Part shown: piece after piece, positions 5,066-64,000 of the stretch
Position numbering within the stretch: position 1 is the first letter of the stretch
Layout: each line of letters opens with the position of its first letter
Assembly (NCBI GenBank): GCA_963575745.1
Contig: CAUYUJ010015724.1
Coordinates: forward strand, 62,001-126,000
Direction of reading: 5' to 3'
Source: Prorocentrum cordatum
Taxonomy: Eukaryota > Sar > Dinophyceae > Prorocentrales > Prorocentraceae
DNA: 64,000 bases
The notes under the pieces: model-generated
Databases searched by the model: none
What the model saw: only the letters and a program-made list of their open reading frames with translations
Told to the model about the DNA's origin: nothing
Made by a program: the position numbers and the translations under genes

Positions 5066-5086
5066 ATTTTCGTTGTGGCTTCCGAC

Positions 5087-39856: not shown

Positions 39857-39872
39857 GGGAATGGGGCCAGCC
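39808..39872. other. Centre of symmetry of the foldback element
   Basis: GGCTGGCCCCATTCCC (39808-39823) is followed, after a 33-base spacer, by its exact reverse complement (39857-39872). Here the repeat units change orientation. The spacer is a truncated unit spacer ending CGCTTGTA. The whole element could therefore fold into a stem of more than 2 kb. Confidence 0.9.
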
Positions 39873-47010: not shown

Positions 47011-47630
47011 TCACCAACACCCGAGTGACCACTCCACAGGGCAAGGGGGGAACAAGCGACCGTGGGCCACGCAGCGCGTGCCGGCACGGCGCTAGGCCTC
47101 AGAGAGGGGGCGGAGGGTCCGCAGGCGGGGGCGCACCGCCAGCGGAGGAGCGAGGGGAGGGGCGGCACGGGTGGTAGTGCTGCCTCCTGCGGTGTCAAAG
47201 GGCGAGGCGCCTGGGGGAGCTGCACTGTGGAGGACACGAGGGCCAGGAGGCAAGCCAGGCCCAGTCCGCCGAGAGGCACCGTCCCCCAGATCCGAGACCC
47301 AACACACACCACGAGGTCCTCCAGGGCCGAAGCACACTCCGCAGAGAGTGGGAGCCAGACCACGAAGCGCAGAACACGGGCGGCCCTGGGAGGGGGGGCA
47401 ACCACCCCGACGTCGGATAGCACGTCTGGCAGGCCCCGAGGCCGAGGGCGGGGGACACCCGCCAGGCCCGAGAGGGGAGAGGCGAGGAGAAGCACCGCCA
47501 CACCCCTCGGCCAGGCCCCGAATCCGAGGGCTAGGGGCCAAGGTCATCTCGTGGGTTTCCCTTAATCCGAAAGCCCTTATAACGGCGACGATGGAACACA
47601 GTGCCGGGGAACTGCTTTGAACATCACCAG

Positions 47631-47666
47631 TCGTTCAAAGCAGTGCCCCGGCACTGCTTTGAACGA
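47631..47666. repeat. 36-bp palindrome, relative of the 55.7-kb array
   Basis: TCGTTCAAAGCAGTGCC, then CC, then the exact reverse complement of the arm. A partial copy (GTGCCGGGGAACTGC) lies just upstream at about 47601-47615. The core TTCAAAGCAGTGCC is the same as in five tandem palindromes at 55745-55950. Confidence 0.85.
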
Positions 47667-47809
47667 TGCGGAAATGCGATCAGCAGGAGCCTTCGTCTGT
47701 TCCTTCTCCTCTTCTCGTCGCTGTATGCTCTTCCTTGTCCTCCCTCCTCCCCCGTTCCCTCTCTAATTAATTACCTCGTTCTCCCAGTCTCACGCGCACT
47801 CTTCCTCCC

Positions 47810-48120
47810 CCCTCTCCTCCTCCTCTTCCTGCTTCTCCTCCTCGTCCTCCTCCTCCTCCGCCTCCTCCCCCTCATTTGTTATATTTCTCCGTCCTTGTCC
47901 TCCTGTCCCCGTTCTCCTTCTCCCTCTCCTCCTCCTCCTCCTCCTCGTCGTCGTCGTCCTCCTCCTCTTCCTCCTCCTCCTCCTCCTCCTCCTCCTCTCC
48001 TCCTCCTCCTCCTCCTCCTCCTCCTCCTCCTCCTCACCTTCTTCCTCCTCCTCCTCCTCCCCCTTTTCCTCTCCCTCCTCCTCCTCCTCCTCCTCCTCCC
48101 CCTTCCCCCTCTTCCTCCTC
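47810..48120 (-). repeat. (TCC)n tract
   Basis: About 300 bases of mostly TCC units on the + strand. Pyrimidine-rich DNA continues in patches to 48377, just before the first gene of the right-hand cluster, and may provide the trans-splice acceptor tract. Confidence 0.9.
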
Positions 48121-48374
48121 TGCTATCACTCCTCCATAATTCCTGTCCGCTCCTCCCCTTCACTGATCTTCCTCTTCGTCATCATCATCCCTTTCGTCGC
48201 ACGCCTCTTAATCCTCAATCGGTTCCCAATCTTCTCGACTTTCTTGTCATCCGCGTCCTTGGCTGTTGGAGGGGCCTCAGGAATTCTCAGGGCTCTTGTG
48301 TTGCACGCGAAGGCACACCTCCCAGGAACGCATCATCCTCCTCACATTCACCCTCCTCCTCCTCATCCTCCTCC

Positions 48375-48395
48375 TCCATGCACGTTCGGCTCAAG
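48375..48395 (+). other. Weak relict spliced leader before the 48470 gene
   Basis: TCC-ATGCACGTTCGGCTCAAG aligns with the spliced leader at about 15 of 22 positions, including the last eight (GGCTCAAG). It follows a pyrimidine tract and lies 74 bases before the ATG. Suggestive, not proven. Confidence 0.35.
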
Positions 48396-48469: not shown

Positions 48470-49636
48470 ATGCGTGCAGGGTGGGATGACAAAGCGGAAG
48501 AGGAAACACGGGCCGCAGTTGCGGATTCTTCAAAGAGCAGCGGCGGCGGTTGGGGAACAAGTGGGGGTTGGGGCGGCCGCAGTGGCGGATACGGCGGCGG
48601 AGGTGACCGCAGTGGCGGCTGGGGCGGCGGAGATTCTCTTGGCGGATGGAGAGGAAAAGCGCAGGATGGCGGCGACGGAAGTGACCGCAGTCGCGGATGG
48701 GAGGGCGGCGGATGGGGCGGCAACGGATGCGAGGGTTGGGGAATGGAGGGCGCCCGCTGGTGGGACGACGAGGGTGGCTGGTGGAATGCATGGGAAGGTG
48801 GCCGCTCGAGTGCCTCGGCAGGTTCTCCTGCCGCGGAGCCCGCGGCCGCAACAGCGGCGGGCAAAGGAGGCGGTCCCCTGCTTCCCCCAGGGCGCGAAGA
48901 ACAAGGCGCAGTTGCGCTGTTTCAAATTGTGCGCAATGAGCCGCTGCCAATTTTCAAGTTGGAATTCTTCGAGAACTTCAGGGCGAACTGGAACGGCAAT
49001 TATAAGCAGCACAACGCGGCCTTGAAGTGGTTCCGAGACGAGTACGAAGACCGAGAAAACCCTTTCGGCAGCCGCACGCCCGTCTTCGGAGGTACCGCAG
49101 TTGCGGAGGAAATTTCGAAGATCCTTAAGTACCGCGCAAAGGGGAAGGCGCAGGACAACAGGGATTGGGACTGGGACCACACTGTCAAAGTGCCGTGGTC
49201 TTGGCTGGAGATGGTCGCGCAGATGGATGGACCTACAATGCTGCGCGTCGTGTGCGGCCCTGACAATGACCGCAGTCGCGGGTTGGTCCGCTGCGAGTGC
49301 CGCCCGTGCCCTAGCAGTCTCGACAACATGAGGCACACGAAAGGGGTGGACAGAGGACAGGCGCAAAGAATCCCTCTGCCCCAGTGGGATTTCGTCCTCA
49401 TCCGCGACGACGGCTCGGGCATTCGCGTCCACCCATCCTGGTCTAGCCCGAAGTTCAACACGTATGAGGTGGAGCCGCACTCGCATCCCGTGCGGGGCCC
49501 GAGGGCAGGTCTCGGCAAGAGCGATGGCCACGGAACGTTCACGTTCTGGAAGATGCTGCACGCCCATCCGAATCCTGGGCGGTTCGACGCGAGCAAGGGG
49601 GCGCAGCTGCAACCGCGGTGGTCCGCGCAGCCTTGA
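48470..49636 (+). CDS. Gly/Trp-rich hypothetical protein
   Basis: 388 residues from ATG 48470. The frame is open further upstream but only through pyrimidine-tract translation, and the ATG follows a pyrimidine tract and possible relict leader. Residues 1-150 are Gly/Trp/Asp-rich (GGGWGTSGGWGGRSGGYGG, WWDDEGGWWNAWEGG), probably disordered and RNA- or protein-binding. The rest is a normal globular domain (EFFENFRANWNGNYKQHNAA, WFRDEYEDRENPFGSRTPVF, VPWSWLEMVAQMDGPTMLRV). No family recognised. It contains six exact CCGCAGTNGCGG dodecamers, encoding AVADS, GRSGG, DRSGG, DRSRG, TAVAE and DRSRG. First of six + strand genes. The C-terminal region of the 61930 gene is also Trp/Gly-rich. Confidence 0.75.
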   Translation: MRAGWDDKAEEETRAAVADSSKSSGGGWGTSGGWGGRSGGYGGGGDRSGGWGGGDSLGGWRGKAQDGGDGSDRSRGWEGGGWGGNGCEGWGMEGARWWDDEGGWWNAWEGGRSSASAGSPAAEPAAATAAGKGGGPLLPPGREEQGAVALFQIVRNEPLPIFKLEFFENFRANWNGNYKQHNAALKWFRDEYEDRENPFGSRTPVFGGTAVAEEISKILKYRAKGKAQDNRDWDWDHTVKVPWSWLEMVAQMDGPTMLRVVCGPDNDRSRGLVRCECRPCPSSLDNMRHTKGVDRGQAQRIPLPQWDFVLIRDDGSGIRVHPSWSSPKFNTYEVEPHSHPVRGPRAGLGKSDGHGTFTFWKMLHAHPNPGRFDASKGAQLQPRWSAQP

Positions 49637-50225
49637 CACCGCAGTTGCGGGATTGCGCAGCCATGGAACCGCAGTTGCGGGGACCGATCGCGTGACGCCG
49701 CGCTCGTTTGACTCACTATGCGCGCTTTCGGCCGCAGTTGCGGCGCTGCCTTCTAGCGACTTCATACAGCTTGGCCGCAGTTGCGGCGCTCCCACGACTG
49801 ACCGCTGTAATTAGGTGCTTCGGGCGCGCATCACCTCCGTTGAAGCACTCGTGACGTTAATTAGCGCGGCCGCAGTTGCGGAGACAGGTACTTAAACAGA
49901 TGGATCCGCAGTTGTTCGTCGTCCTCGTCGCCCCTTCCCCGTCGTCCTCGTCGCAGTCTCCTCCCTCCGCCTTTCCTCCTCGTCGCAGTTCCTTCCGTTG
50001 GCCGTAGCCCGCCTCCGTTGGCCGAGTCATTTCCCGTCGTCCTCGTCGCAGTCCCCCCCGAGGGCCGCAGTTGCGGACTTTGTTGATTCCTCCTCCTCCG
50101 TTTCTGCCCCGTCATCCTCGTCGCAGTCCCCTTGCTCCTTTCACCCTCGTCTGAGCTCTTCGCGCCATCCTCTTCCGTCGCGTCCTCTCCATCCTCCTCT
50201 TCGCCTTCCTCGTCCTCATCCCCGC

Positions 50226-50255
50226 CGTCTCCCTCGTTGCCCTTCCTCTCCCAAG
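50226..50255 (+). promoter_or_regulatory. Candidate trans-splice acceptor for the 50302 gene
   Basis: A pyrimidine tract (CCCTCGTTGCCCTTCCTCTC) leads to CCAAG with AG at 50254-50255, 46 bases before the ATG. Similar leader length to that inferred for the 57487 gene. The 49637-50225 spacer holds six dodecamers and C/T-rich DNA. Confidence 0.45.
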
Positions 50256-50301
50256 CCGGCCGCAGTTCCCCCGTCGGACGGGGGCCGCGCGCGGCCACGC
50301 C

Positions 50302-52128
50302 ATGGACCCAGGTCGCAAAGCCGAGGTCGACAAGCGGTTCGCCGAGCTGAAGCAGCAACTGCGGGAAAGGTTCGGCCTGCAAGGGGCTGCCGCGGATGCC
50401 GCAGTCGCGGAGCCGACGGAGGACCGCAGTTGCGGAAGCCCCGAGCGACCGCCGCGCGAGGCCTCCCCGCAGTCGTCTAGCTCCTCGCGGGAATATCGGC
50501 CGCCGCCGCCGATAAGCGCTGCGAGTGGGAGCTCTGCTGGTGGGAGGCGCGAAGAGGCGCAGTTGCGCAGGGCGCACTTGACCCCCAAGGCAAAATGGGG
50601 GCCTCGGGCGCAGACGCCGACGAAGCAGCAGGACCAACCAGCAGTGACGGGAGCCGCCACCGAGACCGCAGTTGCGGGGGTGGCCGGCGAGCCAGGTGCC
50701 GCGCGCGGCTCATCTGGGAGCAGCGCGCCCTCGGCCGTGCTGCTCGCAGCCGAGTCCAAACGAGGCGCCCAACCCGAAGACGAGGCCGCCTCCCAGGAGA
50801 AAGCCGCCGAGACAACCGCCTCGGCCGATTCGCGGCCGAGGAAAAGGCCGCCTCCCACGGAAGACTCGCCGCTGTCAGAACCGCAGTCGCGGGGTCGCGC
50901 GGGGCCTCCGTCGGAACCGCAGTTGCGGGAAGATGCGGGAGCACCGCGGAAGAAGCAGCGGACCAGGTCCCCTCCAGGGATAAACTACTTTGGGGAACGC
51001 CCCAAGTGGAACGAAGGATTCCTTCGTACAGAAGACGGCAATCGGGTTCCGTCCACCATCGCTTTGGTGTTCAACGTGGTGGTCATCACGAAGGTGGCAA
51101 CAAAGGAAGATGTCTTCAGGTGCATCTTGCACCAAACTGCGGCGGTCGTCTTCGTCGTATGGGACCCCGAGCTGTTCCGCACGGGGAACGTCGAAGGCGC
51201 TTGCAGCTACGACGTTCCCGTTGGACTCAGGACTGCCGTCGAAGACGCTGTCACTTTGAAAAACAACACCGCGGAGCCTTACTGGACGACGGTTGGCCTG
51301 TTCAGAGACACGGGCGTGGTGCTCGTGCGCCCGCACATCATCGCAGAGACCGCAGTTGCGGGTCATGTTGTTGGGGCCACCCACGCCGTCACGATCCTGC
51401 GCTTTCGCCTGAAGGGCTCCGACATGAATCCTGCCGCGGTGATCCGTTTTGCCGTCGTGTCCAGACACGCAGTCACCGAACGTCTCCAACAGAAGATCAC
51501 GCAAACAGAACAAACAGCGTGGCAGCCAGGTTTCTTCAAGGACGCGGTTGCTTCCATCCATAAAAATGATGTGCGGTTCTTGTGCGGCCTGTTTGACATC
51601 CCGCCTGAGCAGCTCGCAGCATTTGGCCGCAGTTGCGGAGCCAGCTACACCTGCCCGGTGGGGGTGGTGTTCAGGGCTGGACCCGCCCTGTTCGGAGGCA
51701 TTGTGGAGGGCACACGCGTCATGCATCCGAATTACGTCCTCCCCATTGGCCCGTGCGACGTGCGCATTGCGGACTACAACCTGGATTTTGCAGGGAGGCC
51801 GTCGAAGAACGATCCCCAGTGGCTCCCTGATTGGATGCATCGAACAAGCGACTCCATCATCTCTCGGCGCTGGGTCCCAGCGAAGTACATGCCCAAGTGG
51901 GAGGATGACCCTGACCGCAGTAGCGGAGTCAGAGAAAAGCTCGGCTTGGCAGCGCTGCCCCCAATCGGCAAGGTCATTCAGAAGGAGCTCAACGAGAAGA
52001 CCTTCAGCACGCACTGGTGCGAGGGCATCCACCAAAACGTCGTCTTCGTCGGCCACGGACGCCAGAGTCGGGCGAGCAAGCGGAAGCACGAAGAGGCGCG
52101 ATCTGCCGCAGTTGCGGACGAGCGGTGA
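50302..52128 (+). CDS. Hypothetical protein with EEP-like C-terminal half (tentative)
   Basis: 608 residues from ATG 50302. The N-terminus is a short coiled-coil-like helix (KRFAELKQQLRERFG). Residues about 30-230 are Ala/Pro/Glu/Ser-rich and contain many dodecamer-encoded peptides (DAAVAEP, DRSCGS, TAVAGV). From about 240 on the protein is globular: FNVVVITKVATKEDVFRCIL, VVFVVWDPELF, TILRFRL, IRFAVVSRHA, RFLCGLFDIPPEQL. The order and spacing of TILRFRL, IRFAVVSRH and RFLCGLFDIP recall VRVHL, MAVHVHH and CMGDFNM in the EEP-like protein at 61930, so it may be a diverged, catalytically dead relative. That link is inference. A basic tail (RASKRKHEEARS) ends the protein. Confidence 0.75.
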   Translation: MDPGRKAEVDKRFAELKQQLRERFGLQGAAADAAVAEPTEDRSCGSPERPPREASPQSSSSSREYRPPPPISAASGSSAGGRREEAQLRRAHLTPKAKWGPRAQTPTKQQDQPAVTGAATETAVAGVAGEPGAARGSSGSSAPSAVLLAAESKRGAQPEDEAASQEKAAETTASADSRPRKRPPPTEDSPLSEPQSRGRAGPPSEPQLREDAGAPRKKQRTRSPPGINYFGERPKWNEGFLRTEDGNRVPSTIALVFNVVVITKVATKEDVFRCILHQTAAVVFVVWDPELFRTGNVEGACSYDVPVGLRTAVEDAVTLKNNTAEPYWTTVGLFRDTGVVLVRPHIIAETAVAGHVVGATHAVTILRFRLKGSDMNPAAVIRFAVVSRHAVTERLQQKITQTEQTAWQPGFFKDAVASIHKNDVRFLCGLFDIPPEQLAAFGRSCGASYTCPVGVVFRAGPALFGGIVEGTRVMHPNYVLPIGPCDVRIADYNLDFAGRPSKNDPQWLPDWMHRTSDSIISRRWVPAKYMPKWEDDPDRSSGVREKLGLAALPPIGKVIQKELNEKTFSTHWCEGIHQNVVFVGHGRQSRASKRKHEEARSAAVADER

Positions 52129-52334
52129 GTGCGGCAAGACCGAGGAGCCGCAGTTGCGGAACAGAGCTCGGTACTACTGGGCGCCTGCTGCCTGCGTAGT
52201 GCATCCCATTAGCGATGGAGTGCATGTTGCGGTGTAGGATAGCCCGCAGTTGCGGGGTTGCGGTTGCCAAGCCGCAGTTGCGGTTGCGTATAATAGGAGA
52301 GCACGCGGTTGCGAAGCCGCAGTTTGCAATAAGT

Positions 52335-52660
52335 GTGCGCGCGCTGGGTCATCATCATCGTCGTCGTCCGTCCTCGTCGTCGTCGCTGCCGTCGTCGTCG
52401 TCGCGTCTGTCGTCTGTCGTCAGCAGTCGTCGTCGGTCGTCGTCGTCGTCAAGTCTGTCGTCTGTCGTCAGCAGTCGTCGTCGTCGTCGTCCCTCCTCCC
52501 TCCTCCCTCCTCCCTCCTCCCTCCTCCCTCCTCCCTCCTCGTCCTCCTCCAGGCCGCATCCCCCCGCCACCTCCGTCCTAGCTCTCCTTCCCCTTCCCCT
52601 CCTCGTCCTCCTCCAGCTTGCACCCCCCTCCCTCCTCCAGCCTGCGCCCCCCCCAAGCTC
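52335..52660 (+). repeat. GTC/CGT and CTCCCTC simple repeats
   Basis: 52335-52495 is built of TCG/GTC triplets, with a ~47-base block (GTCTGTCGTCTGTCGTCAGC...) present twice. 52496-52545 is CTCCCTC repeats, followed by pyrimidine-rich DNA with several AGs that may serve as trans-splice acceptor for the 52830 gene. Confidence 0.85.
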
Positions 52661-52829
52661 TCGCCCGATATTTTGGATTAAAACTGAGCCTTCAGTCGTC
52701 CGCAGGCATTCGGCTCAGCAGGTCGTTGGGCTCCTGGCACACACGCCTCCACCCTGAGCGACGGACGTCGTGCCATAGTCCGCCATATCGGAGCTCCGGG
52801 CCGCAGTGGCGGACAGCGTCGGCACAGAT

Positions 52830-55254
52830 ATGAACGACAGCGTCGGCACAGATAATGCCGCAGTGGCGGACAAGAAAGCCGCAGTGGCGGACGAGACAGC
52901 CGCAGTTCCAGGCGGAACGCAAGGGATCTTTCAGAGGGCCAACGCCTTGAGGTCTAGATTCAGGACAGGGGACAAGGTGCGCCTCCCTGTGCTCATGCTC
53001 GCCCCGCACACGGGCAACCGAGGCGGGCACTACCCTCAGCAGGAAAGGGTTCGGGAACTCGCTGTGAAAATCTTCCTGGCTGGATTCACGCAAGCCGAAG
53101 CTGACCACGAAGGTGTCTGCGTTCAGATGTACCCAGCACAAGAGCTGGTGCTGAGAAAAAAGGAGGACCCGAAGTTCCAGACGTACACAGAGTACAATCT
53201 GGAAAAAGCGACCGGCCACCTCGCTGCGTGCTTCGACCGCAGTTGCGGAACAGACGTTGCGTATGGGACGTGTTCGCACTCCCACTTGTGCCTCGTGTTG
53301 CGGGCGTGCGCCCTGGGAGCCAAGTGGCCCATCCCCCAAGGCATGGAGTTCACGGAGGACGAGAGCGCGAGGCTGAAGCGCGTGCTCGATAAGGACGGCA
53401 ATCTCGACATGGCCGCAGTGGCGGAACATGACCCTGTCGCTAAGAAACTCGTGCAGGGGGGTATGCTCATGGAAGTGCTTAGCTGGAAAATCATGGACGA
53501 GGAACCCACTGGTGCTTCGCTCATCAGCCAGTCCCTCAATAAAGGAGCCGATTTTGCGTTGCGAACGACTGAACTCACCGCGCTCCGTGTTCTGTGCAAG
53601 GCTGTTGACGCGGAGCTGCACGCCGCAGTTGCGGATCAGGTTGCCTTTGAAAGGTCAAGCTCTCCGTCATGCACGAACTCGATCGAGTCGTTCAGGACCC
53701 AGACTTCATTGAGCTGTTCTCGTTCGTTGTTGGGCTCGGGAGCACGAAAGCGCAGTTCATCCCCTTGCTGCTCCAGTTCTGCGAGGTCTACGTGAACTCC
53801 AGGAGAAGGGCCCTTCGGCTCGGTGCCTTCGGGGCAGCCAGCGAGCTTCCCGACGAAGTGCCGTGGGTCAAGGTTGCCGTGGTGATGCGATGCTACAGGA
53901 ACGCGCCTGCGAGGAAGAGGGGCGTTGACACTCCTGTGTGGTGCCCTGACCAGAACAATCGTGGAAGAAGAAGGAGTTCCGAGACTTCCTCATCGACATG
54001 AACTCGGCTCTCCGTTTGTACTTGTTCACGCTGAGCAAGGCCATCGACGGCATGGGCCCTGAGAAGGCGATCGAGTTCAAGGCGAACCTGTGCATACTGA
54101 CCGCAGACGGCTTCATGCAGTACCTGAAGGACACCCACGTCAAGGAACGAAGTATCCCAGGACATCGTCAGGCGCTCCTCCGCGCTTGCGCGGAGGCCAC
54201 GGGGAAGGTGGAGCCGAAGTCCAATCGGGACGCCCTTGAGAAGGCCCTCGGCGAAGTGGGAGTCGGAGGCGGGAAGCCCGATTGGTTCGATTTCAACGCG
54301 TTGCCGCGCCCAGAACCGAATGAGCCCGCAGTGGCGGGGAAGACAAAGGCTTCCGCAGAGGAGCACGAGTTGATGCCGACGGTCATTTCCTTTGACCCCA
54401 CGACGCAATTACCAACGAACCACCAGCGCAGCAGGGACACGACGGCCATTCCACGCGGATCCTTCCCTTTGCCAATCGCCGAATGGAGGCGTTCAGCGGC
54501 AGCGAAGGAGCTGGGGCGGGAGCCTGCTTTGGTCAGCGCAGTGTTGCTGTGCCTTTGGGCGCGCCACATGTCCGCAGTTGCGGAAGCGCAAGTAGAGGTG
54601 TTGCAAGACGCTGACACAGAGAAACGCACCGTCAAGGCAACCGCTGCAAACGACGAAAAATGCATCGAGTTGTGGCCGTGCGTCCCAAAGGCATCCAAGG
54701 TGCACGCCGCAAGCACGCACCCCGAGAGGGTGGCCGTGCAAGTCTGGGTGAAAGGAGATCCAAATGGGGCCACGCCCACGACCTTCTACTTGCACCCCGA
54801 GTTCAAGCCGCCTGCGGACAAGACGCCCGCCGACGTGGCTGACCACGATGTGCGGTTGAGAGCATGGAAGTGGGATGCGCAAGAGACAATGCACGTCTTC
54901 TGGGCAGTCAACAGAGTCACGGAACAGGAGATCCAGCAGAGAAACAGCCGTAATGAAAGCGCAGTTGCGCGCATCAACATGGAGCTGGAGACGAAAGAAT
55001 TGGCGGTGTGCGTGCCTGGGACAGGCGGGGTCGTGCTCGCCGTGAATGTCCCTGTGCTGGTGAATACCACGGCCGTGAAGAAAGGAGAAGAGCTCCTGTG
55101 GGAGGCGAGACCCAAAACCGCACCGAAGAAGAAGGCGGCCGAGGAGACGTGGAAGACGGACGCGGCCAAGAGGGCCAAAGGGAAGCCTTCGGGCCAGCCC
55201 GCGCCGAAGAAATCGAAGAAAGGGTTCGACGAAAGCGGGAAGATGTCGCTCTAA
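52830..55254 (+). CDS. Large hypothetical protein, frame broken twice
   Basis: Starts at ATG 52830; the frame is open to GTG 52806 but no ATG is further upstream. The N-terminus is a run of dodecamer-encoded AAVAD peptides, then a globular part (FRTGDKVRLPVLMLAPHTGN, CVQMYPAQELVLRKKEDPKF). At about 53648 the credible frame moves from VAFE to KVKLSVMHELDRVVQDPDF, and at about 53955-53965 from CPDQNN to KKKEFRDFLIDMNSALRLYL. Each break is repaired by assuming one missing base (in GAAAG and near AATCG). The rest is uninterrupted to TAA and ends in a Lys/Ala-rich tail (KAKGKPSGQPAPKKSKKGF is approximate in character). About 808 residues if intact. No family recognised; the basic tail suggests nucleic acid or nuclear function. 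Confidence 0.65.
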
Positions 55255-55554
55255 TTAAGAAAGCCGCAGTGGCGGCAGTCAGGGCGGCTTGCTCGCGTGA
55301 CCGCAGTTGCGGGCAACAGGCCGAAGGGGGGGGCGCACGCGTGACCGCTGTTGCGGAGCGCTCGTGTAGTTTGCAGTGTCACTGCTTCTGTTAGCTGATG
55401 CCGCAGTAGCGGACCGCTGACGATCGAGCACGGAGGTTCGAAACGGACCTCCTCCCTCCCTTCTCCCTCTCCTCCCTCGCCCTTCCTCCACTTCCTCCCT
55501 CTCTCCTCCTCCTTTCTCCCCTTCCTCCCAAGTTGGAAGCCGAAACTACTCATT

Positions 55555-55742
55555 TCCTCACTCCCTCCCTCCCTCCCTGGAGGCCCTGGAGGGCCTCCGC
55601 CCTGGAGGGCCTGGAGGGCCCTGGAGGCCCTGGAGGGCCTCCCTGGAGGCCCTGGAGGCCCTGGAGGGCCTCCCTGGAGGCCCTGGAGGGCCTGGAGGGC
55701 CCTGGGCTGAGGGCGGAGGCCCTGGAGGGCCTCCGCCCTCAG
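55555..55742. repeat. GGCCCTGGAGGGCC nested palindromes
   Basis: Words CCCTGGAGGCCCTGGAGGGC and GGAGGGCCTCC are repeated many times and are largely self-complementary. The end GGGCGGAGGCCCTGGAGGGC followed by CTCAGAATGC is mirrored after the next array (CATTCTGAGGGCGGAGGCCC, 55947 on), so the two sides can pair across the array. Confidence 0.85.
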
Positions 55743-55744
55743 AA

Positions 55745-55950
55745 TGCTTCAAAGCAGTGCCGCGGCACTGCTTTGAAGCACCAATGCTTCAAAGCAGTGC
55801 CCGGCGGCACTGCGTTTGAAGCACCCGGGTGCTTCAAAAGCAGTGCCGCGGCACTGCTTTGAAGCACCCGGGTGCTTCAAAGCAGTGCCGCGGCACTGCT
55901 TTGAAGCATCCGGGTGCTTCAAAGCAGTGCCCCGGCACTGCTTTGAAGCA
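55745..55950. repeat. Five tandem 36-bp palindromes
   Basis: The first (55745-55780) is perfect: TGCTTCAAAGCAGTGCCG joined to its reverse complement. Four more follow, separated by CCAA or CCGGG spacers; the second and third carry small insertions, and the last has CC at the centre. The spacer CCCGGG is itself palindromic. Frames reading QCRGTALKH through it are not protein-coding. Confidence 0.9.
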
Positions 55951-56021
55951 TTCTGAGGGCGGAGGCCCTCCAGGGAGGCGCGAGGATCGCAGGGACCGAG
56001 GGAGGCCCTCCAGGGAGGCGT

Positions 56022-56043
56022 TCAGCTCGCCATCTGGCTCAAC
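56022..56043 (+). other. Very weak relict spliced leader before the 56114 gene
   Basis: GCCATCTGGCTCAA matches GCCATTTTGGCTCAA of the leader with one gap and one change; the upstream part does not match well. Its position 71 bases before an ATG is the reason to mention it. Confidence 0.2.
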
Positions 56044-56113
56044 CGCGCGCGGCCCCACTGCCCGCACCCCCGCCTTGCCCGCAGTTGCGGCTGTGTCCAG
56101 CGCAGTAGCACAC

Positions 56114-57111
56114 ATGCCGACTTCGAGCGAATGGAGCCCTGTGTGCGTTGAGAAGGTCTCGTGCATCCGTGGAGGTTGGCTTGCGCAGACCACCCCCATC
56201 CCCGAAAAGGATGTCAAGGTGCTCCACGCAGGGCCCCTCGGAGAGATAAGCTTCGTGCACGTGAACATGCAAAAGGCTTGGCTGCTCAAGGTGTGCGCCA
56301 AAGGTAAACCGACCGCAGGGGCCTTGAAGGCCTCCAAGGCCTGGGACGCGCTGAAGAAAGAAGTCGCGAAGCAGGGCGGCGCCGCAGTTGCGGACGATGA
56401 GAGCGACGGCGACGCGGGGGACGAAGCAGATGACCCCATGTCGGCCCTGGTCAGCTCCACGGACGCCACGAAGAAGCAGGCAGCGACCCCGACCAGCGCC
56501 AAGAAGCAGAAGACTGGAACGCGTGCGGCGACTACTGGCCTGCCCAGGGGCGAGGCCGTGGAGTCGGCCATAGCCACTGTGCACTCCGTACAGATGCCCG
56601 CAAAGAGCCCCATGAAGTTTCCGCACGACACGGCCGTTCGAAACGTGCGGGTGGCCAGCTTCAAGCGGAGGACGTTGTGGCTGGACGCTGCAGACCTTGG
56701 GTGGCTGATCGACATGATCGTGGACGACGTGAGCCTCGGCGGTGTCCCCGACATCGGCGACGGCGACAAGGACGAGGCCGCAGTGGCGGACAGGGACTGG
56801 GCAACGGCGGTTGACCCTGCCACCCCGCTGGCGAAGCAAAAGGAGGTCGACCCCCCGTGGCGCAGGGGAGCGGCTCTGGCTTCACCGTCGTTTGGGACTT
56901 CAAGGGCGCTTGGGTCGCGACCATCACGCGAGAGTGTGCCAACAAGGGCAAAAGGATCGAGATGGATGTGAAGAAACTTACAAAGAAGAAGTGGCAGTCG
57001 GCGCAGTCGGTGAAGGGCTACGACTACGAGTGGGAGGGCATGACGCAGCACCAGCGCAAGCAAGCGGCTCTGGATTACCTCGAGCTCCAAATCCCCAGTC
57101 TGTTCGACTGA
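56114..57111 (+). CDS. Small hypothetical protein, frame broken once
   Basis: Starts at ATG 56114 (MPTSSEWSPVCVEKVSCI); the frame upstream runs through the palindromes and is not credible. A globular N-terminal part (GGWLAQTTPIPEKDVKVLHA, ISFVHVNMQKAWLLKVC) is followed by an acidic linker with AAVADDESDGDAGDEADD and a Lys/Thr-rich stretch. At 56852-56857 the frame shifts within CCCCCCG: KEVDPP continues as VAQGSGSGFTVVWDFKG to TGA 57109-57111. One missing C restores about 332 residues. FTVVWDFKGAWVATITREC and YDYEWEGMTQHQRKQ look well conserved, so loss of the tail is unlikely to be real. No family recognised. Three bases short of nothing else: no introns seen. Confidence 0.65.
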
Positions 57112-57403
57112 GGCCCGAAGCCGTATGGGCCGCAGTTGCGGTGGGGCTACTGAGTGCCCGCAGTTGCGGGGTGGCTGGGTGCGCGTGAACACGCGGAGGG
57201 CGAGGCGGTGTGAGGAGGCAGGCGGAAGGTTTAGGGTGTTCCACGGGTGCACGCCTTAGTGCGCCAACTTGTGTGGGCGAGCGTTTTTCTTAGAGAAGCA
57301 TGGAGTGAAGCATCGAAACCCTGTGCGCGCGATGATTGGGGCTTCCGCGCGTGCGTTGTTGAAAAGTACCTCCTTCTTCGCCCCTCCGCATCGTCTTCAG
57401 TTG

Positions 57404-57432
57404 CTCCTCCCTCCTCCCCTCCCTCTTCCTAG
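57404..57432 (+). promoter_or_regulatory. Candidate trans-splice acceptor for the transposase gene
   Basis: A 27-base tract of C and T (CTCCTCCCTCCTCCCCTCCC...) ends in TAG at 57430-57432, 54 bases before ATG 57487. This is the cleanest acceptor in the window. Confidence 0.55.
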
Positions 57433-57486
57433 TTCTGTAGCCCGCAGCCGAGTGCCCGGCCCGAGTCGTTCGCCACGCGACCGATC

Positions 57487-60400
57487 ATGGATGTTCCCGT
57501 GGGGCGGACATGGTATGGCGAGGAGGACGGAACGCATTTCGAGGTGGAGTGGCTCCATTACGACAGCGGCTGCGCACCGAGGAAAACGAAGTATGGCACC
57601 ACTGGGCTCGCCAACATCTTGGGCCGCAGTAGCGGCGTTCCGTGCCCCAAGAAGATAAAGGTGCACGCATGTGCGGATTTTCCGTGCCTAGCGAAGTGGC
57701 CCGCGTCGCAGTACGGCCTTGTTGAGCCGCCTCGCTTTCATTTGCGGCCGTCTGCTTGGCGACCGGGCGCGACGCCACCCCCCGCAGTTGCGGCTCCAGG
57801 CGGCACCGCAGTTGCGGCTCCCTCGGCCCCTGCACACATAGCACCAGCAACACCAGCAGAACTCGCAGCTCCTGCGCAAGAAGGACACGCAGCTCCAGCA
57901 CCAGAAGCACCCGCAGAACCCAAACCTCCAGCAGCCCCTGTGCCCGAAGCACCCGCAGCAGCAGTCCCTCCAGCTCCTCCAGCTCAAGTGCACGCAACAC
58001 CAGACCCGCCTGCTGCGCAGGAGACCGCGATTGCGGTTGAAGCTCCTGAGGGAGTGGAAGCGGACAAAGACACACCACTTCCAGCACGCTTGCCACCAGC
58101 GCGGCCGCTGCCAGAGAACTGGTCGAAGACGCAGGTCGCATTCTTCCCGTGCCCAGACCCAAAGGCTGCAGCACGAGTTGCGGCGCCTGTTGGCGACGCC
58201 TTGCGGCCACGAGTCGCGGCGCCACCCCTGGCGCCAGAGAAAGGTGTACCTGTGGAAGACGCGCCAAAGATCCAGGCCGCAGTGGCGGCGACGGTGCCTG
58301 ACGTCGTGATGGCTCTCCTGAGGCAGATTCTGTCCGAGAATTCCTACATAGGGTATTCAGCTTTCATGCTGTTTGCCTTGCGGTTCGGGCGTCGACCTTA
58401 CGTGTGGGAAGGCGAGAACCGCAAGGACCTCCTTGACTTCTACATGCCTTGGGCAAAGGAGAAGTGCACTGAGCCATGCGCCGTCGACGGCGTGGCGTGC
58501 GTACTCGCCGCTGCTGAGGATCTGTTCGGGGAATGGACAACGGTGGAACTCAGGCCCGTGACTCCCGAGAACCCTCTCCATGAGGTGCGCCACTGGGTGG
58601 CCGCAGTTGCGGTGGGTGGCGTGTGCTCTGAGGGGGCGGACGCGTTGAACAGGTTCTACGGTCCTCTGGGACAATGGGTCCTAGGGACTGTTTGCGATGG
58701 AAACTGCGGCATTGACCTTATGGCGATGATGTTGCAGAAACCGCAAAATGCCGAGACGCGCAAATGGCTTCGGGAGGAACTGTACGATTTCGGGGTGCGC
58801 CGCTGGGACGAACCGTGGTTGCACGACATGCTCGTTGTCACGCAGGAACTAACCTTGGAGGAGGTGCGGGCGTACCGCAGTTGCGGGGCCAGCGGCCCTG
58901 CTGGACCCATGGTCCTGCACGACTCCGAGGGCGAGGGCGAACCAGCAGAGGCGCCGAGAGAGGCGAGCGCGCCACGCCCCGCTCTCATGGCGGCGTTAGA
59001 GTGGCAGACGGGCGTGCAGGACATGGGTATATTGCTTGCCATGGCTGAGGCTATGCCCGAGGCGTTGCAGGAGGAGCAGATCAGGGCGCACGCACTGGCC
59101 AGCGCACGCCCAAAACCCGAAGTTGCGGAACAGAAGCGGCGCGTGTGCCCGCACATGCTCAGAGACCGCGAACTGGTTTGCAAAGAACTGGAGGCGCACG
59201 CACGCAGTTGTGGTTGGATGGGCGAGGGCGTTCTGCCACGGAATTCAATCGCGTCTTTTTGCGGGCGGTTCACGTGGCCGAAGGGCATGGGGGTCGTCCA
59301 GCAGCGCCAGGCCGTCTCCAAGTGGTTTCAAAACTGGCGCACACAAGGTGGACATGGCACGGCGGGCGTGCATGGCCGACGCCGCGCGCGGGGCAACCAA
59401 GGGCGCCCGAACAAGGCTCCATGGCTGGAAGCCGCTCTGTACGAGTGGTGGTCCCACATGAGGTACTCCGTGGACTGGAAGGCGGTGGCCAAGCGAACCG
59501 CAGTTGCGGAGGAGAGGCCCAAGATGTTGGCCAGGTTCTCCCAATCCCTGCTGGTTACGAAGGCGAAGCAACTCGTCGCGGACTACTGCGTGGAGACAAT
59601 GAAGCGGGGAGGCAAACCGATGGTGCCGCAGTTGCGGCCTCGGTGGTGGGTGAAGTGGCGGCGCTCCTACGGCCTGAGCATGAAGAAGCCGAACCGCAAG
59701 TACAAGGTGCCAAAATGGTTGCTCCAATCTCGTTTTGAGACTATGATCTTGAACGTGGCCAGGGTCCGCGCAGCTGCAGAGGAGCTTCTGGGGTACGACC
59801 CGCACATCCTGAACTGGGACCAGTCGCCCTTTCACCACAACGAGTCGTCGTCGGCCTCGAAGCCGACCTTGGCTGTGAAGGGTGGCATTGTCCCGCTTGT
59901 CGAGGCGCATGACGACAGCAGGGCTCGGTGGACAGCGAACCTGACGGTGTCGAGCGACGCGGAGGACATCCGCAGTTGCGGACCACCGCCGGCGGAGCTA
60001 ATGTTCAAGGGGGGATCTGTCATCGCTGAGGGCTTGGCCGCACATGCCCGCAGTCGCGGCTATCCGTCTTGGGTGAGCACGGCGACGTCCGAGAAGGGGT
60101 CCTACCGCGCAGACGACGTTGTATCATTCTTGCAGCGGCACTTGCGGGCCTGGCCCGACGACCCGCAGTTGCGGGGAAAGTGGCGCATCCTCATGGCCGA
60201 CGACCATTCCCCGCACAAAGCAGACGCTGTGCGGAGACTCGCCTGGCAGCGCGGCTACGTGCTGATCATTCACGGCGGGGGGACGACCGCAGTTGCGCAG
60301 CCCGTGGACACGGACTTGAACCAGCACGTGAAGCGCCGGTACATTGCCCTCGAGACCAAAGCGCTGGTGCAGCAAATGGCGTTGGGGAAGCACGTGCCGC

Positions 60401-61602
60401 AGTTGCGGCGTTCCGATTGCGCCGACTTGATGCTGTCAGTGTTGGAGAATGTGCAGTTGCACTTGGACGCCGCGAAAGGTTTCCTGAAAGTGGGAATTCG
60501 AGCGCCCTTCGACAAGTCAGGAGATCTCGAGATTTGCCGAGAGGCGGCGGAACTCTGGGAAGCAGGGGGGCTGCGAGCAAAAGTGGACACCGCAGTCGCG
60601 GAGGTGAGGGAAGAATGCGAGCAGAAACGTTTGAAATGGTCCTACAATGACGTGCTGCGTCTCATACACGAATACGAGAAACACGACGCCACAGATTCCG
60701 TGTTGGAGAAGCTCGGCGACGAAGCGCTAGGCCAGGAGCCAGGCCACGAGGAGGGCGATGAGGAGGGCGGGGAGGAGGAGGAGGAGGAGGTGCACGAGGA
60801 GCACGAGGAGGACGAAGAGCAAGAGGAGGCCTCGTGGGCCGAGGCTCTTGCGGAACAGTGCGATGCCGCAGTTGCGGCACCTGGGCCTCAAGGATCCTCG
60901 GTATCCATGGACTGCGTGGTCGACGCAGAGGCGGCCGAGCAGGTGGCAGTGGCGACGTCCTTGGCAGAAACGCTCCGCGAGGCGGAAGATATGCTGCGCC
61001 AAGTGGGCATGGAGAAACTAGCGCAGGATTGCCGACAGCAACGACACAAACAAAAGAAGCGGTTGAGAGAGCTGGCGCGGGAGGACAACGAGGTCCTACG
61101 AGCGTTGACTGCCCAGCGAGACCACGAAGCCGCAGTGGTGGCGAAAAAGCGGCGCCTGGCTCTGGAAGCGAACGACAGGACGAAGGCGTTGCACGATCTC
61201 AAGAAGCAGATTCGAGAGGCCGAGGCCGCCTTGAGGGCAAAGAAGGAGGCCGCAGTTGCGGTGGAAACGGCTTTGGCTAACAAACACGCCCTAGCGCAGT
61301 GGAATCCCGAGGAGTTCAAGATCAAGAAAAACAGGATGGCAGCTCTGGATCGCCTGGCTCGCGGAAAAGGCGTCCTCTCAGACGAGCAGAGGGGGGAGTG
61401 GGCATGGTTCAAGACGCATTGGGACGAGGAGATGTGCAAGCAGCACAAGGAGCAATGGCCGCTCACGTTTGCTGGGTGGCTGCAAAAAGTCGCGAACGAC
61501 GCGGCGTCTGGGAACCGTTCGGCGCTGTCGCAGTTCGTGCATTCGGAAACAGTGAGAACCCTGGGAGGGCAAATGGCGCTGGTAATCCCAGCCCTAGCGT
61601 GA
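57487..61602 (+). CDS. DDE-superfamily transposase with OTU-like motif, 1371 residues
   Basis: Residues about 1-95 form a small domain (WYGEEDGTHFEVEW, GTTGLANILG); 95-230 are Ala/Pro-rich. Residues 402-420 read VCDGNCGIDLMAMM, resembling the DGNC active-site loop of OTU cysteine proteases, as fused in some algal transposons. A helix-turn-helix-like region with WPKGMGVVQQRQAVSKWFQN precedes the catalytic core. The core has NWDQSPFHHNE (D778), ILMADDHSPHKAD (D905/D906) and QPVDTDLNQHVKRRY (D941). D906 to D941 leaves 34 residues, as in the pogo/Tc1-type DDE_1 group. An acidic run and a long charged coiled coil follow. No frame break in 4.1 kb, so it may be active. At least 14 exact dodecamers lie inside, one variant encoding TAVAQ directly before the third acidic motif. 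Confidence 0.85.
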   Translation: MDVPVGRTWYGEEDGTHFEVEWLHYDSGCAPRKTKYGTTGLANILGRSSGVPCPKKIKVHACADFPCLAKWPASQYGLVEPPRFHLRPSAWRPGATPPPAVAAPGGTAVAAPSAPAHIAPATPAELAAPAQEGHAAPAPEAPAEPKPPAAPVPEAPAAAVPPAPPAQVHATPDPPAAQETAIAVEAPEGVEADKDTPLPARLPPARPLPENWSKTQVAFFPCPDPKAAARVAAPVGDALRPRVAAPPLAPEKGVPVEDAPKIQAAVAATVPDVVMALLRQILSENSYIGYSAFMLFALRFGRRPYVWEGENRKDLLDFYMPWAKEKCTEPCAVDGVACVLAAAEDLFGEWTTVELRPVTPENPLHEVRHWVAAVAVGGVCSEGADALNRFYGPLGQWVLGTVCDGNCGIDLMAMMLQKPQNAETRKWLREELYDFGVRRWDEPWLHDMLVVTQELTLEEVRAYRSCGASGPAGPMVLHDSEGEGEPAEAPREASAPRPALMAALEWQTGVQDMGILLAMAEAMPEALQEEQIRAHALASARPKPEVAEQKRRVCPHMLRDRELVCKELEAHARSCGWMGEGVLPRNSIASFCGRFTWPKGMGVVQQRQAVSKWFQNWRTQGGHGTAGVHGRRRARGNQGRPNKAPWLEAALYEWWSHMRYSVDWKAVAKRTAVAEERPKMLARFSQSLLVTKAKQLVADYCVETMKRGGKPMVPQLRPRWWVKWRRSYGLSMKKPNRKYKVPKWLLQSRFETMILNVARVRAAAEELLGYDPHILNWDQSPFHHNESSSASKPTLAVKGGIVPLVEAHDDSRARWTANLTVSSDAEDIRSCGPPPAELMFKGGSVIAEGLAAHARSRGYPSWVSTATSEKGSYRADDVVSFLQRHLRAWPDDPQLRGKWRILMADDHSPHKADAVRRLAWQRGYVLIIHGGGTTAVAQPVDTDLNQHVKRRYIALETKALVQQMALGKHVPQLRRSDCADLMLSVLENVQLHLDAAKGFLKVGIRAPFDKSGDLEICREAAELWEAGGLRAKVDTAVAEVREECEQKRLKWSYNDVLRLIHEYEKHDATDSVLEKLGDEALGQEPGHEEGDEEGGEEEEEEVHEEHEEDEEQEEASWAEALAEQCDAAVAAPGPQGSSVSMDCVVDAEAAEQVAVATSLAETLREAEDMLRQVGMEKLAQDCRQQRHKQKKRLRELAREDNEVLRALTAQRDHEAAVVAKKRRLALEANDRTKALHDLKKQIREAEAALRAKKEAAVAVETALANKHALAQWNPEEFKIKKNRMAALDRLARGKGVLSDEQRGEWAWFKTHWDEEMCKQHKEQWPLTFAGWLQKVANDAASGNRSALSQFVHSETVRTLGGQMALVIPALA

Positions 61603-61884
61603 TGCAGGCCGCAGTTGCGGACCCACAGGAAGTCCAGAGGGAAGTTGTTTTTCCAAGCGGCTCCCGCGCGGGCAGGAGATGAGGCAAAACCGCAGTTGCG
61701 GTCTTCCTGCTGCTGTGAAAATAATCCTTTCACAGTCCCTTGCAATCGTCGCCCTCCTTCTGCTTCTCCGCCAGTCCATTTGTTGTTCTTTCGGTTCCTT
61801 TGAGTCCTCGCCCTCCTTCTGCCACTCCTCGAATCCTCTTTGTCTCCTCCCTCCATCCGACCCCATGCCCATTCACGATCCATT

Positions 61885-61906
61885 TCCGTAGCCACCGTGG
61901 CTCGAG
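61885..61906 (+). other. Relict spliced leader before the EEP-like gene
   Basis: TCCGTAGCCA, then CCG in place of TTT, then TGGCTCGAG: 18 of 22 positions match the dinoflagellate leader. It ends 23 bases before ATG 61930, almost the same spacing as at 5044-5065. Pyrimidine-rich DNA (61801-61860) lies just upstream and could carry the current acceptor. Confidence 0.65.
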
Positions 61907-61929
61907 GTGGCGCACGCGAAGACGCAAGC

Positions 61930-63914
61930 ATGTGGCCGCCCGCGCGCCCGAGCGCATCCTCAGGGAGTATGGACCGTGGACTTCGATTCGCCAGAACGGT
62001 GTTCATCCACAACGCTGAGGAGGAGGAGGGAGGCAAAGACGAGGAAGCCGCAGTTGCGGATGATGACGACGACCAGCGGACGCAAGATGGCGACAGCACC
62101 GTCGCGTCCTCGGCTGCCTCCGCTGACGAGGCTGAGTCCCGGGGAGGTGCGGGAGCCGCAGTTGCGGCAGCACATGACTCCTACATGCCGAGAGTGTTGT
62201 CGTCGCGGAGACCCTGGAAACGGGTGCCCATCATCGAGACAAGCAATCTGTCGGAAAACAAAGAGCTCTTGTCGACGCATGGGAGGAGAAAACGGAGTTC
62301 GAAGCGGGACGGGTCGGCTTCTACGTGGCCAACTTCGGAGGGACTGCAGCTAGACCCACGCAACGCGCGGACGAGTGGGCGCAGCTCCGCGCGAACCCTG
62401 CCCAGATCATCGCCCTCTGCGAGTGCGACGACGAGACCTGCGCGGTACTCAGTGGGGAGCACGACGCGAGGGACAGTGCAGCCGCAGTTGCGGACGATAG
62501 GTTTCGGAGTCGGACTCAATACAACTACCTGTGCGTTAAGGGCGGCGAGCCATCAGGGACCCTCCTTGTTGGCATGAGGGACCGCAGTGGCGGCCACATT
62601 GAACACGTAGACTTTGCGAGACTCTTCCACAAGCAGGAGAAGTCCAAAACGAAGAAGAAGAAGAAACAGTCCGCAGTTGCGGAGGCTCCTGCGCCAAAGC
62701 TGCACAACAAGTACTCCAGGGCGATGGTGGTGCGCGTCCACCTGGACCAGGCCGTGACCCATTTGGGGGGCTCCTTCAACGTCATGGCGGTGCACGTCCA
62801 CCACAGCTTGGCCAACCAAGACTGGGGCGTCACGAAGCTCCATGAGTTCTACAACTGGTTCGTCGCCTACGTCAGGGAATGGGACGTGAAGGTCTGCATG
62901 GGGGACTTCAACATGTGCATGTTCCAGCTTGTGTCCTGGTGCCGCAATTGCGGCCTGACTGTGGACGTCGCCGCGTGGACCCCCTGGAAGACAGCAGGCG
63001 GCCAGCCCAGGGCAGACAGCATGGCGATTTTGTTCATAAACTGTCCTGGGCAGTACAAGCTTCACCATGGCCTGAGTGTTCTGCACGACCGTGAGGGCGG
63101 ATTCTTGACGACCCAGCATGATCCGTCTTTCCCTGTCTTCGACTACACGAATGGCCCTGGGAAGATGCTTCAGACTTACGTGCCCAAGGCTGAGCCCGTT
63201 GAAAACAAGATGCGCGCCTTCCTGACGCCATCTGGCGAATCCTTGACCGCAGTTGCGGAGTTCGAGCAAAGGATGGCGCGCAGGGAACGCGACGATTGGG
63301 TGCGCCATCCCTTCAGAGTGAAGCAGGGCAACCTCGACGACAAGATATGGCATGGCGCCTTCGGCAGGGCGAGGCACGGAGCGCACTTCCCTCTGGTGGC
63401 TTTCACGCACAATACGTGCCGCAGGTCACCTGAAAGACTCGCCGCGAGGTTGGAACGCAGGAAGGGCGGCAGGAAGGGCGGCAAGAAGGGCGGCAAGAAG
63501 GGCAGCTACGCGGACACCGCAGTTGCGGGGAAGGGCGTCCGACCCCAGATGGGAACCGCAGTTGCGGGGAGAGACGCTGGGGCTGAGCGAGCTGGGAACA
63601 CGCCACCGCCGCAAGCTGCCAACGGCGACGATGCGACCCCTTCTTGTGCCGCAGTGGCGGCTGGGTCCTGGGACGCCAGCGGCAGCGGCGCATGGGAGGC
63701 GCGCAGTCCCGCCACGAGATGGCAGGGCTGGTCCTGGTGGGACTGGAGCTCGAGCGAATGGGGCGCTGATGGCGCGCAGTGGTGGCCCTCTGATCATGCC
63801 GCAGTTGCGGACAATGCCCCTGAGGGCTCGCCTCCTCAGCGTGAAGTCGAGTGGGGCTCGAGCGGGCGACCTGCCGAGCGCCCTCCGTGGAGCTTCGAGG
63901 CGCAGCGTTGGTGA
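61930..63914 (+). CDS. Endonuclease/exonuclease/phosphatase-like protein, frame broken once
   Basis: ATG 61930 follows a relict leader. The N-terminal part (FARTVFIHNAEEEEGGKDEE, AAVADDDD, RRPWKRVPIIETSNLSENKE) is in one frame; from about 62268 the frame is VDAWEEKTEFEAGRVGFYVA onward. One missing C in GAGCTCTTG restores ELLVDAWEEK and gives about 661 residues. The core has IIALCECDDE, FNVMAVHVHHSL and VKVCMGDFNM (62901-62912), the GDFN motif of the EEP fold used by AP-type and retrotransposon endonucleases and by deadenylases. A clear C-terminal SDH motif was not seen; WPSDHAAVAD occurs in the tail but may be chance. The tail is Gly/Lys- then Trp-rich. Substrate unknown. Confidence 0.7.
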
Positions 63915-64000
63915 TGGCCGCAGTTGCGGGCAAGTGGAGCATGATGTTGATTGCCGCAGTTGCGGACAGTGTACGCTGGAAAAATCATCATCATCATCAA

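What the first reader, a model, noticed from the sequence alone, without database searches (positions are those of the whole stretch)
48513..63965. A one-directional field of about 69 CCGCAGTNGCGG dodecamers
The sequence shows about 69 exact copies in 15.5 kb, all on the + strand, none in the preceding 48.5 kb, and no exact reverse-oriented copy. They lie in six genes and in all spacers. A near-palindrome should not care about strand, so strict orientation points to something acting on transcripts or tied to transcription. It differs from known dispersed short palindromes such as cyanobacterial HIP1, which is fully symmetric. It is the best candidate for an undescribed system in this window.
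Basis: seen in the sequence. Interest (0 to 1): 0.95.

Follow-up and report, generated by a model that had tools for sequence, protein, structure and literature searches.

The report
Oriented hairpin tags in transposon genes
A cluster of jumping-gene-type genes in a marine alga carries the same 12-letter hairpin word, always in the reading direction and about every 230 letters, which looks like an undescribed way of tagging one family of messages.

Summary
In detail: 69 exact CCGCAGTNGCGG on +, 0 on -, all from 48513 on; shuffles give 0.12. The host is the dinoflagellate Prorocentrum cordatum. The words fill seven + strand gene models; 68 of 69 lie in coding sequence, within 250 nt after a stop codon, or between a spliced-leader-like site and an ATG. 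They use all three frames (A-V-A 31, R-S-x-G 13, P-Q-x-R 5); synonymous shuffling gives 1.1 against 49. One gene is a Mos1-like DDE transposase. In 97 homologues the sense-strand peptides are strongly enriched (AVA 735 against 110 expected); the antisense counterpart is not (ATA 72 against 68). The one host gene available as a control, with its relatives, shows no enrichment. Words overlay existing codons and are not insertions. Best reading: a multivalent mRNA-level hairpin tag (CCGC-AGUN-GCGG), read by an unknown RNA-binding or RNA-modifying protein, marking mRNAs of one mobile gene family. My literature searches, of an open-licence library, found no such system.

The parts
48513..63965 (+). 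Field of 69 CCGCAGTNGCGG words (4-bp stem CCGC/GCGG, loop AGTN); it runs to 35 nt before the window end
47740..48380 (+). Pyrimidine-rich tract (mostly CTC) upstream of the first gene; no words
48385..48395 (+). Weak spliced-leader-like site (score 9), 75 nt before ATG 48470
48470..49636 (+). Gene 1, no known family; 6 words; 5 more words within 250 nt after its stop
50302..52128 (+). Gene 2 (P0002), no known family; 9 words
52700..52717 (+). Weak spliced-leader-like site (score 10) before gene 3; the word at 52801 lies between it and ATG 52830
52830..53795 (+). Gene 3, no known family; 5 words
53998..55254 (+). Gene 4 (P0003), no known family; 2 words; next word 9 nt after its stop
56029..56042 (+). 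Weak spliced-leader-like site (score 10), 72 nt before ATG 56114; the word at 56079 lies between
56114..56971 (+). Gene 5, no known family; 2 words in this model; 3' end unsure
57487..61602 (+). Gene 6 (P0001, 1371 aa): DDE transposase, 15 words in all three frames
61886..61906 (+). Spliced-leader relict, 17 of 21 positions, 63 nt before ATG 61969
   Evidence: leader sequence checked in PMC6050394
61969..63914 (+). Gene 7 (P0004; P0105 in another assembly, 648 aa), unknown function, 10 words; the window's reading frame switches at about 62257 relative to P0105
5075..8308 (+). Host gene used as internal control (P0005): no word; identifies Prorocentrum cordatum

Best explanation
The words are a sense-strand RNA element: a short stable hairpin (CCGC, loop AGUN, GCGG) repeated along the mature mRNAs of a family of mobile, transposase-linked dinoflagellate genes. 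A trans-acting protein that reads the AGU loop on a G+C stem binds many copies per mRNA and so sorts these mRNAs from host mRNAs (for stability, translation, protection from silencing, or preferential copying back into DNA). Shown: the word, its orientation, its distribution over coding, early post-stop and pre-ATG stretches, its excess at the nucleotide level in three frames, its sense-strand peptides in homologues, and its origin by substitution at aligned sites. Inferred: that these stretches are the mature mRNA, that the word acts as RNA, that a protein reads it, and what the mark does.
For: Orientation 69:0 although only the four loop bases break the symmetry, so the loop matters and not only the palindrome. 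68 of 69 words in CDS, within 250 nt after a stop, or between a leader-like site and an ATG; 17 of 19 spacer words within 250 nt of the stop. In the gene models 31 of 37 AVA, 13 of 14 RS[CGRS]G and 5 of 5 PQ[LSW]R are exact words; synonymous shuffle mean 1.1, maximum 6, against 49. In 97 homologues AVA 735 against 110, RS[CGRS]G 216 against 7.5, PQ[LSW]R 53 against 3.0; antisense ATA 72 against 68. Flanks of AVA in two halves of the homologues fit CC and G of the full word: preceding S/P/T/A 0.75 and 0.84 (background 0.27, 0.28; controls ATA 0.43, 0.41, ALA 0.12, 0.22, AIA 0.35, 0.41, VAV 0.68, 0.59), following G/A/V/D/E 0.87 and 0.88 (background 0.39, 0.38; controls 0.24 to 0.74). Words kept at 19 of 22 aligned sites in the nearest relatives, 10.6 expected from the same alignments, P 0.0002. 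Overlay without length change, e.g. RSCG against RENG. P0011 has RNCG at three separate columns and no AVA, as if its loop had changed to AATT at several sites together. Hairpin energy about -5 kcal/mol.
Against: All seven genes share one strand, and in the homologues I see one gene each (two for two contigs), so element orientation and transcript sense are confounded. The antisense hairpin is as stable alone (-5.0). In +-75 nt context the stem is predicted above 0.5 probability for only 24 of 69 words, about as with shuffled flanks (23) and fewer than on the antisense strand (28). The stem does not extend beyond 4 bp, and stem covariation is thin (4 of 7 variant sites fully paired). In a further relative, P0009 (54% identity), only 2 of 12 words are kept, about the 2 that background identity predicts, so maintenance shows only in the nearest relatives. 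No reader protein is known and no transcript data were available. Antisense P[QLPR]LR (24 against 9.7) and R[YHND]CG (6 against 1.6) are raised, in part by PQLR (19) and P0011's RNCG (3). In one 12-row clade of distant homologues the word shows almost only in the AVA frame (135 AVA, 23 RSxG, 2 PQxR), so there the nucleotide word is less certain. Two of 97 homologues have no AVA.
Confidence: 0.5

Rival explanations
1. A specific form of the best reading: the hairpin is a substrate of the unknown writer of N1-methyladenosine in dinoflagellate mRNA, the loop A after C being the methylated base.
For: Dinoflagellate mRNA carries abundant m1A in an NNCA context, 81.4% of mapped sites in 3'UTRs, with more stable 3'UTR structure in marked genes, made by an unidentified enzyme (PMC11549093, passages and section 8; comment PMC11549392, first of two parts). 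The word has A after C at the loop start, and spacer words cluster just after stop codons.
Against: NNCA is a very loose context; only 14.2% of reported sites are in CDS, whereas 49 of 69 words are; the data are from Amphidinium and nothing was measured here.
Confidence: 0.12
2. A DNA-level array: an element-encoded or host protein binds the double-stranded word, as VANC proteins bind motif arrays in Arabidopsis VANDAL transposons to undo silencing.
For: VANDAL21 motifs are short, dense, in one orientation and highly enriched in that family (PMC5735166, passages); here too the word is confined, in this window, to mobile-type genes and may have changed in concert in one lineage (P0011).
Against: VANC21 motifs lie mainly in non-coding DNA and accumulate by tandem repeats; here 49 of 69 are in CDS, spacing is irregular (CV 0.80) and aligned words arise by substitution, so duplication cannot explain one orientation. 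The distribution around stop codons has no obvious DNA-level reason.
Confidence: 0.15
3. A mutational or repair bias that writes the word, as proposed for HIP1 in cyanobacteria (methylation-dependent mismatch repair), without a function for each copy.
For: Words appear by substitution at arbitrary places and near-misses are few (4 single mismatches outside N against 69 exact); alternate HIPs replace HIP1 in some cyanobacteria (PMC4390886, abstract); words turn over to background level in P0009.
Against: A duplex repair bias should act on both strands and on neighbouring DNA; here 69:0 and none in 48.5 kb; words are kept above background in the nearest relatives.
Confidence: 0.07
4. Scars of introners (intron-like transposons): splicing left CCGCAG|TNGCGG in mRNA, which was copied back into the genome.
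For: Would explain sense orientation, the near-palindrome and confinement to mRNA-like DNA; P. [quoted passage not shown]
Against: Needs 12-nt insertions; in the aligned homologues most words replace residues with no length change (TAVAE/TPDRE, IRSCG/LRENG, ARSRG/ARGSG). In 104 homologue pairs 222 AVA sites do have a gap at or near, so insertions at some sites are not excluded.
Confidence: 0.04
5. Artefact of assembly or of the organism's codon or peptide preference.
For: None found for the words; the assembly may hold small indels.
Against: Other assemblies carry the same peptides; three frames and spacers; shuffles.
Confidence: 0.02

Closest known systems
VANDAL/VANC anti-silencing motif arrays (Arabidopsis)
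   Same: Short dense motif in one orientation, tied to one transposon family
   Different: VANC21 motifs are DNA targets mainly in non-coding parts, accumulated as tandem repeats; here CDS plus flanks, no tandem growth, near-palindrome with a fixed loop
HIP1 and alternate HIPs (cyanobacteria)
   Same: Frequent G+C-rich palindrome-like word; lying inside genes and arising by substitution are recalled, not from a call
   Different: HIP1 is symmetric and genome-wide; this is oriented and, in this window, element-restricted
Rnt1p-type AGNN tetraloop hairpins
   Same: Loop AGUN on a stem; a eukaryotic enzyme that reads such loops exists (PMC4334505, passages)
   Different: Rnt1p cleavage needs the first 5 base pairs (same passages); here 4, no extension
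Dispersed packaging signals of RNA viruses (recalled, no call)
   Same: Many sense-strand hairpins with one loop motif spread over coding RNA
   Different: Those signals are degenerate (recalled); no capsid gene recognised here
Dinoflagellate m1A sites (NNCA)
   Same: A after C, 3'UTR-rich, structured
   Different: No 12-nt word reported in the passages and sections I read

Membership tests
DDE transposase (Tc1/mariner-like) | RNase H-like DDE catalytic fold | tested here: met
DDE transposase (Tc1/mariner-like) | Conserved acidic triad | tested here: met
   D778, D905 and D941 invariant in 16 sequences and in 65 (as D239, D366, D402); assignment as catalytic is my reading
DDE transposon | Terminal inverted repeats and target duplication | not tested
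   The right end lies outside the window
HIP1-like iterated palindrome | Strand-symmetric word | tested here: not met
   69 to 0
HIP1-like iterated palindrome | Spread over the whole genome | tested here: inconclusive
   0 in the first 48.5 kb of this window; the genome was not available
VANC-type motif array | Dense motif in one orientation, element-specific | tested here: met
   for this window and one control family
VANC-type motif array | Motif mainly in non-coding parts, grown by tandem repeats | tested here: not met
   49 of 69 in CDS; substitution at aligned sites
Rnt1p AGNN hairpin substrate | AGNN tetraloop | tested here: met
   Loop AGTN in 69 of 69, by definition of the word
Rnt1p AGNN hairpin substrate | Stem of at least 5 bp below the loop | tested here: not met
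   Fifth pair 18 of 69 Watson-Crick against 13.1 by chance; further pairs at or below chance
Dinoflagellate SL-tagged retrogene | Spliced-leader relict upstream of the start codon | tested here: inconclusive
   Clear for gene 7 (17 of 21), weak (score 9-10) for genes 1, 3 and 5, none for genes 2, 4 and 6
m1A site | Methylated A in NNCA | not testable with these tools
   Sequence context fits; no modification data
Introner splice scar | 12-nt insertion relative to word-free homologues | tested here: not met
   No 4-residue gap at the words of gene 6 that align to P0008 and P0009

The most novel reading that the evidence does not exclude
A mobile gene family in dinoflagellates writes a multivalent RNA identity code into all of its mRNAs, paying for it with amino acids in three reading frames, and a co-evolving reader protein uses it to tell its own messages from the host's; the loop can change in concert in a lineage (P0011).
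Probability: 0.35. Interest if true: 0.95.

Novelty: categorically new. Interest (0 to 1): 0.86.

Why it matters
Dinoflagellates rely mainly on control after transcription (abstract of PMC12787238). A 12-nt word at 4.5 per kb that overrides protein sequence would be an unusually strong cis-acting signal, and its sharpness gives a direct bait for the reader protein. It could also bear on two open questions: which enzyme and motif lie behind abundant mRNA m1A, and how mobile genes persist in these very large genomes.

Tried and rejected
HIP1-like DNA word: rejected on symmetry. Peptide or codon effect: rejected by three frames, spacers and shuffles. Insertion or introner scar: not supported by ungapped alignment at gene 6 words. 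Stem longer than 4 bp: no clear extension. Better folding in context: no signal. Regular spacing: none, mean gap 227, CV 0.80. Known families: 20 ORFs had no Pfam hit at 0.01; for the transposase alignment DDE_1 only at 0.094 for P0001 and 0.063 at best; PHROGs gave only weak hits, none useful; no Rfam match at gathering scores and no tRNA gene; the PDB sequence search gave four weak unrelated hits for the transposase profile and none for gene 7; no near match in the phage collection. Gene 7 resembled an endonuclease/exonuclease/phosphatase protein to my eye, but Pfam found nothing and the model was useless (pLDDT 29), so I do not claim it. Relatives in viral contigs: none confirmed for genes 6, 7 and 2. 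A clade-wide N = C word looked promising, and N = C rows cluster on the tree (8 changes, 1 of 500 shuffles as low) while N = T and N = G rows do not (186 and 235 of 500), but one search shows that it rests mainly on two conserved columns, so it is only suggestive. Self-dimerisation of the RNA word (duplex -18.2 kcal/mol for N = T; antisense -15.8) is possible but does not explain the fixed AGT.

Corrections to my own calls: began gene 7 at 61968, while its ATG is 61969 with a frame switch at about 62257. That mislabelled two words (62048, 62156) as RSxG; the counts quoted come from one search, which repeats both analyses on corrected models. One search gave the same picture (30 of 37, 15 of 16, 5 of 5; 1.1 against 50). 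Weak leader-like sites are common: at score 9 or more one search lists 23 places in the first 48.4 kb (15 on +, 8 on -) and 8 in the field (5 on +, 3 on -).
Full report
Observation. The window holds 69 exact CCGCAGTNGCGG, all on the + strand and all from 48513 on; dinucleotide shuffles give 0.12. The fourth loop base is T 48, G 12, C 6, A 3. The core GCAGTNGC occurs 76 times on + and once on - in 48501-64000; 73 of the 76 have a full 4-bp stem, four of them with changed but still complementary outer bases. The first 48.5 kb have 7 core sites on each strand and no word.

Host. ORF 5075-8308 matches a protein named 'unnamed protein product [Prorocentrum cordatum]' at 100% (rounded) over 71% of the query (P0109). 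A near-exact dinoflagellate spliced leader lies at 2615-2635 (20 of 21; leader checked in PMC6050394, passages). The G+C content, 0.58 to 0.67 in 4-kb blocks, fits P. cordatum (59.7% genome, 65.9% genes; PMC10666404, passages), where most genes are unidirectionally encoded.

Genes. I use seven + strand gene models; they are mechanical ORFs and no transcript supports them. Gene 6 (57487-61602) is a DDE transposase by fold with invariant acidic residues. Gene 7 follows it. The same pair appears to lie together elsewhere: P0007 and P0105 report a 6,730-base contig, P0008 and P0106 an 11,273-base contig; that they are the same contigs is inferred from equal lengths and sources. The other five genes match no Pfam family at 0.01, and I had no search left for their homologues.

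Where the words lie. 49 of 69 are in coding sequence, 17 within 250 nt after a stop, 2 between a spliced-leader-like site and an ATG, 1 elsewhere. In the spacers the density is 11.1 per kb within 250 nt of the stop and 1.4 per kb beyond, where several spacers turn pyrimidine-rich before the next gene; composition may explain part of this. The next word after a stop comes at 2, 19, 9, 6 and 3 nt for genes 1, 2, 4, 6 and 7, but at 158 for gene 5 (3' end unsure) and 530 for gene 3. On the + strand of the field 5 sites resemble the leader at score 9 or more, and 4 of them lie within 200 nt before a start codon; the - strand has 3, and the first 48.4 kb have 15 on + and 8 on -, so a single weak site means little. 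Only the one at 61886-61906 is strong. So the words mark what would be mature mRNA, and at least gene 7 looks like a copied-back mRNA.

Nucleotide-level excess. In the gene models 31 of 37 AVA, 13 of 14 RS[CGRS]G and 5 of 5 PQ[LSW]R are exact words; synonymous shuffling keeps 1.1 of 49 (maximum 6 in 1000). Codon-order shuffling gave 0.017 of 50 on the earlier models. The word's codons GTT and AGT are minor ones elsewhere in these genes (14.3% of Val, 7.2% of Ser).

Homologues. The search returned 98 relatives of the transposase (only the 7,993 candidates sharing most words were scored). P0007 is identical, so 97 are counted. AVA 735 against 110 expected from composition, the tripeptide with the largest excess by z; ATA, its antisense counterpart, 72 against 68. 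RS[CGRS]G 216 against 7.5; PQ[LSW]R 53 against 3.0; antisense R[YHND]CG 6 against 1.6 and P[QLPR]LR 24 against 9.7. AVA falls in 179 different columns of 65 aligned rows. These are clusters, many of them related, so the counts are not independent events. The control family of the host gene, P0109-P0113, has AVA 4 against 4.4; the gene 7 relatives P0106-P0108 have 15 against 1.3. Two homologues, P0011 and P0104, have no AVA.

Turnover. Against P0008 (80% identity) 10 of 12 alignable words of gene 6 are kept (3 of its 15 could not be aligned); against P0106 (75%) 9 of 10 of gene 7; 10.6 of 22 would be expected from the same alignments, P 0.0002. Against P0009 (54%) only 2 of 12 are kept, as background predicts (20% of 3-mers, 15% of 4-mers), against P0012 (45%) 4 of 11 with about 1 expected. 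At most aligned sites of gene 6 gains and losses are substitutions in place. In 104 homologue pairs of 60-97% identity 692 AVA sites (with flanks fitting the word) were kept, 174 substituted, 222 had a gap at or near, and 161 were unaligned (pairs overlap). P0011 has RNCG at three columns where, or next to where, others have RSCG, RSGG or RSRG, which suggests a changed loop (AATT).

Mechanism. The hairpin is stable alone (-5.0 kcal/mol, the antisense equally so) but not favoured by its context. The fixed loop and one orientation argue for reading as RNA or another single strand, and the distribution over mRNA-like stretches argues for mRNA. I rate an mRNA tag with a protein reader at 0.5, with the m1A writer as a separate specific candidate at 0.12 (PMC11549093, section 8). 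The nearest analogue in logic is the VANC motif array of VANDAL transposons (PMC5735166, passages), which differs in being mainly non-coding and tandem.

Print. A full-text search for the word with N = T, its RNA form and its reverse complement found one paper, on Bdellovibrio (listing only). Searches on dinoflagellates with palindromic or dodecamer, with short motif and hairpin, on genome features, on mariner or transposase, and on spliced-leader relicts listed no paper whose title or shown start of abstract describes such a word. In one genome paper and two reviews I read only passages around motif terms. The library holds open-licence papers only.

Limits. No genome-wide count, no transcript data, no DNA of the homologues, one strand of genes, one control gene family, right end of the unit outside the window.

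Noticed in passing
window 37691-43889: Two long arrays of the same 108-bp unit (about 19 and 37 copies) in opposite orientation, forming a large inverted repeat.
   Followed up: no
window 55745-55950 and about 47600-47670: Palindromic repeats TGCTTCAAAGCAGTGCC / GGCACTGCTTTGAAGCA, about five tandem units in one place and a related stretch at the other.
   Followed up: no
window 2615-2635 and 5045-5062: Spliced-leader relicts outside the field; the second lies just before the host gene at 5075, so that gene too may be a copied-back mRNA.
   Followed up: partly
window 20113-21620 and 23532-24520: Dense arrays of 16-18 bp units and an 11-copy 90-bp array.
   Followed up: no
window about 62257: The reading frame of gene 7 switches relative to the protein P0105 of another assembly; an assembly indel or a real frameshift.
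   Followed up: partly
P0011 (homologue of gene 6): Three RNCG and no AVA: a lineage whose word seems to have changed its loop from AGTT to AATT at several sites.
   Followed up: partly
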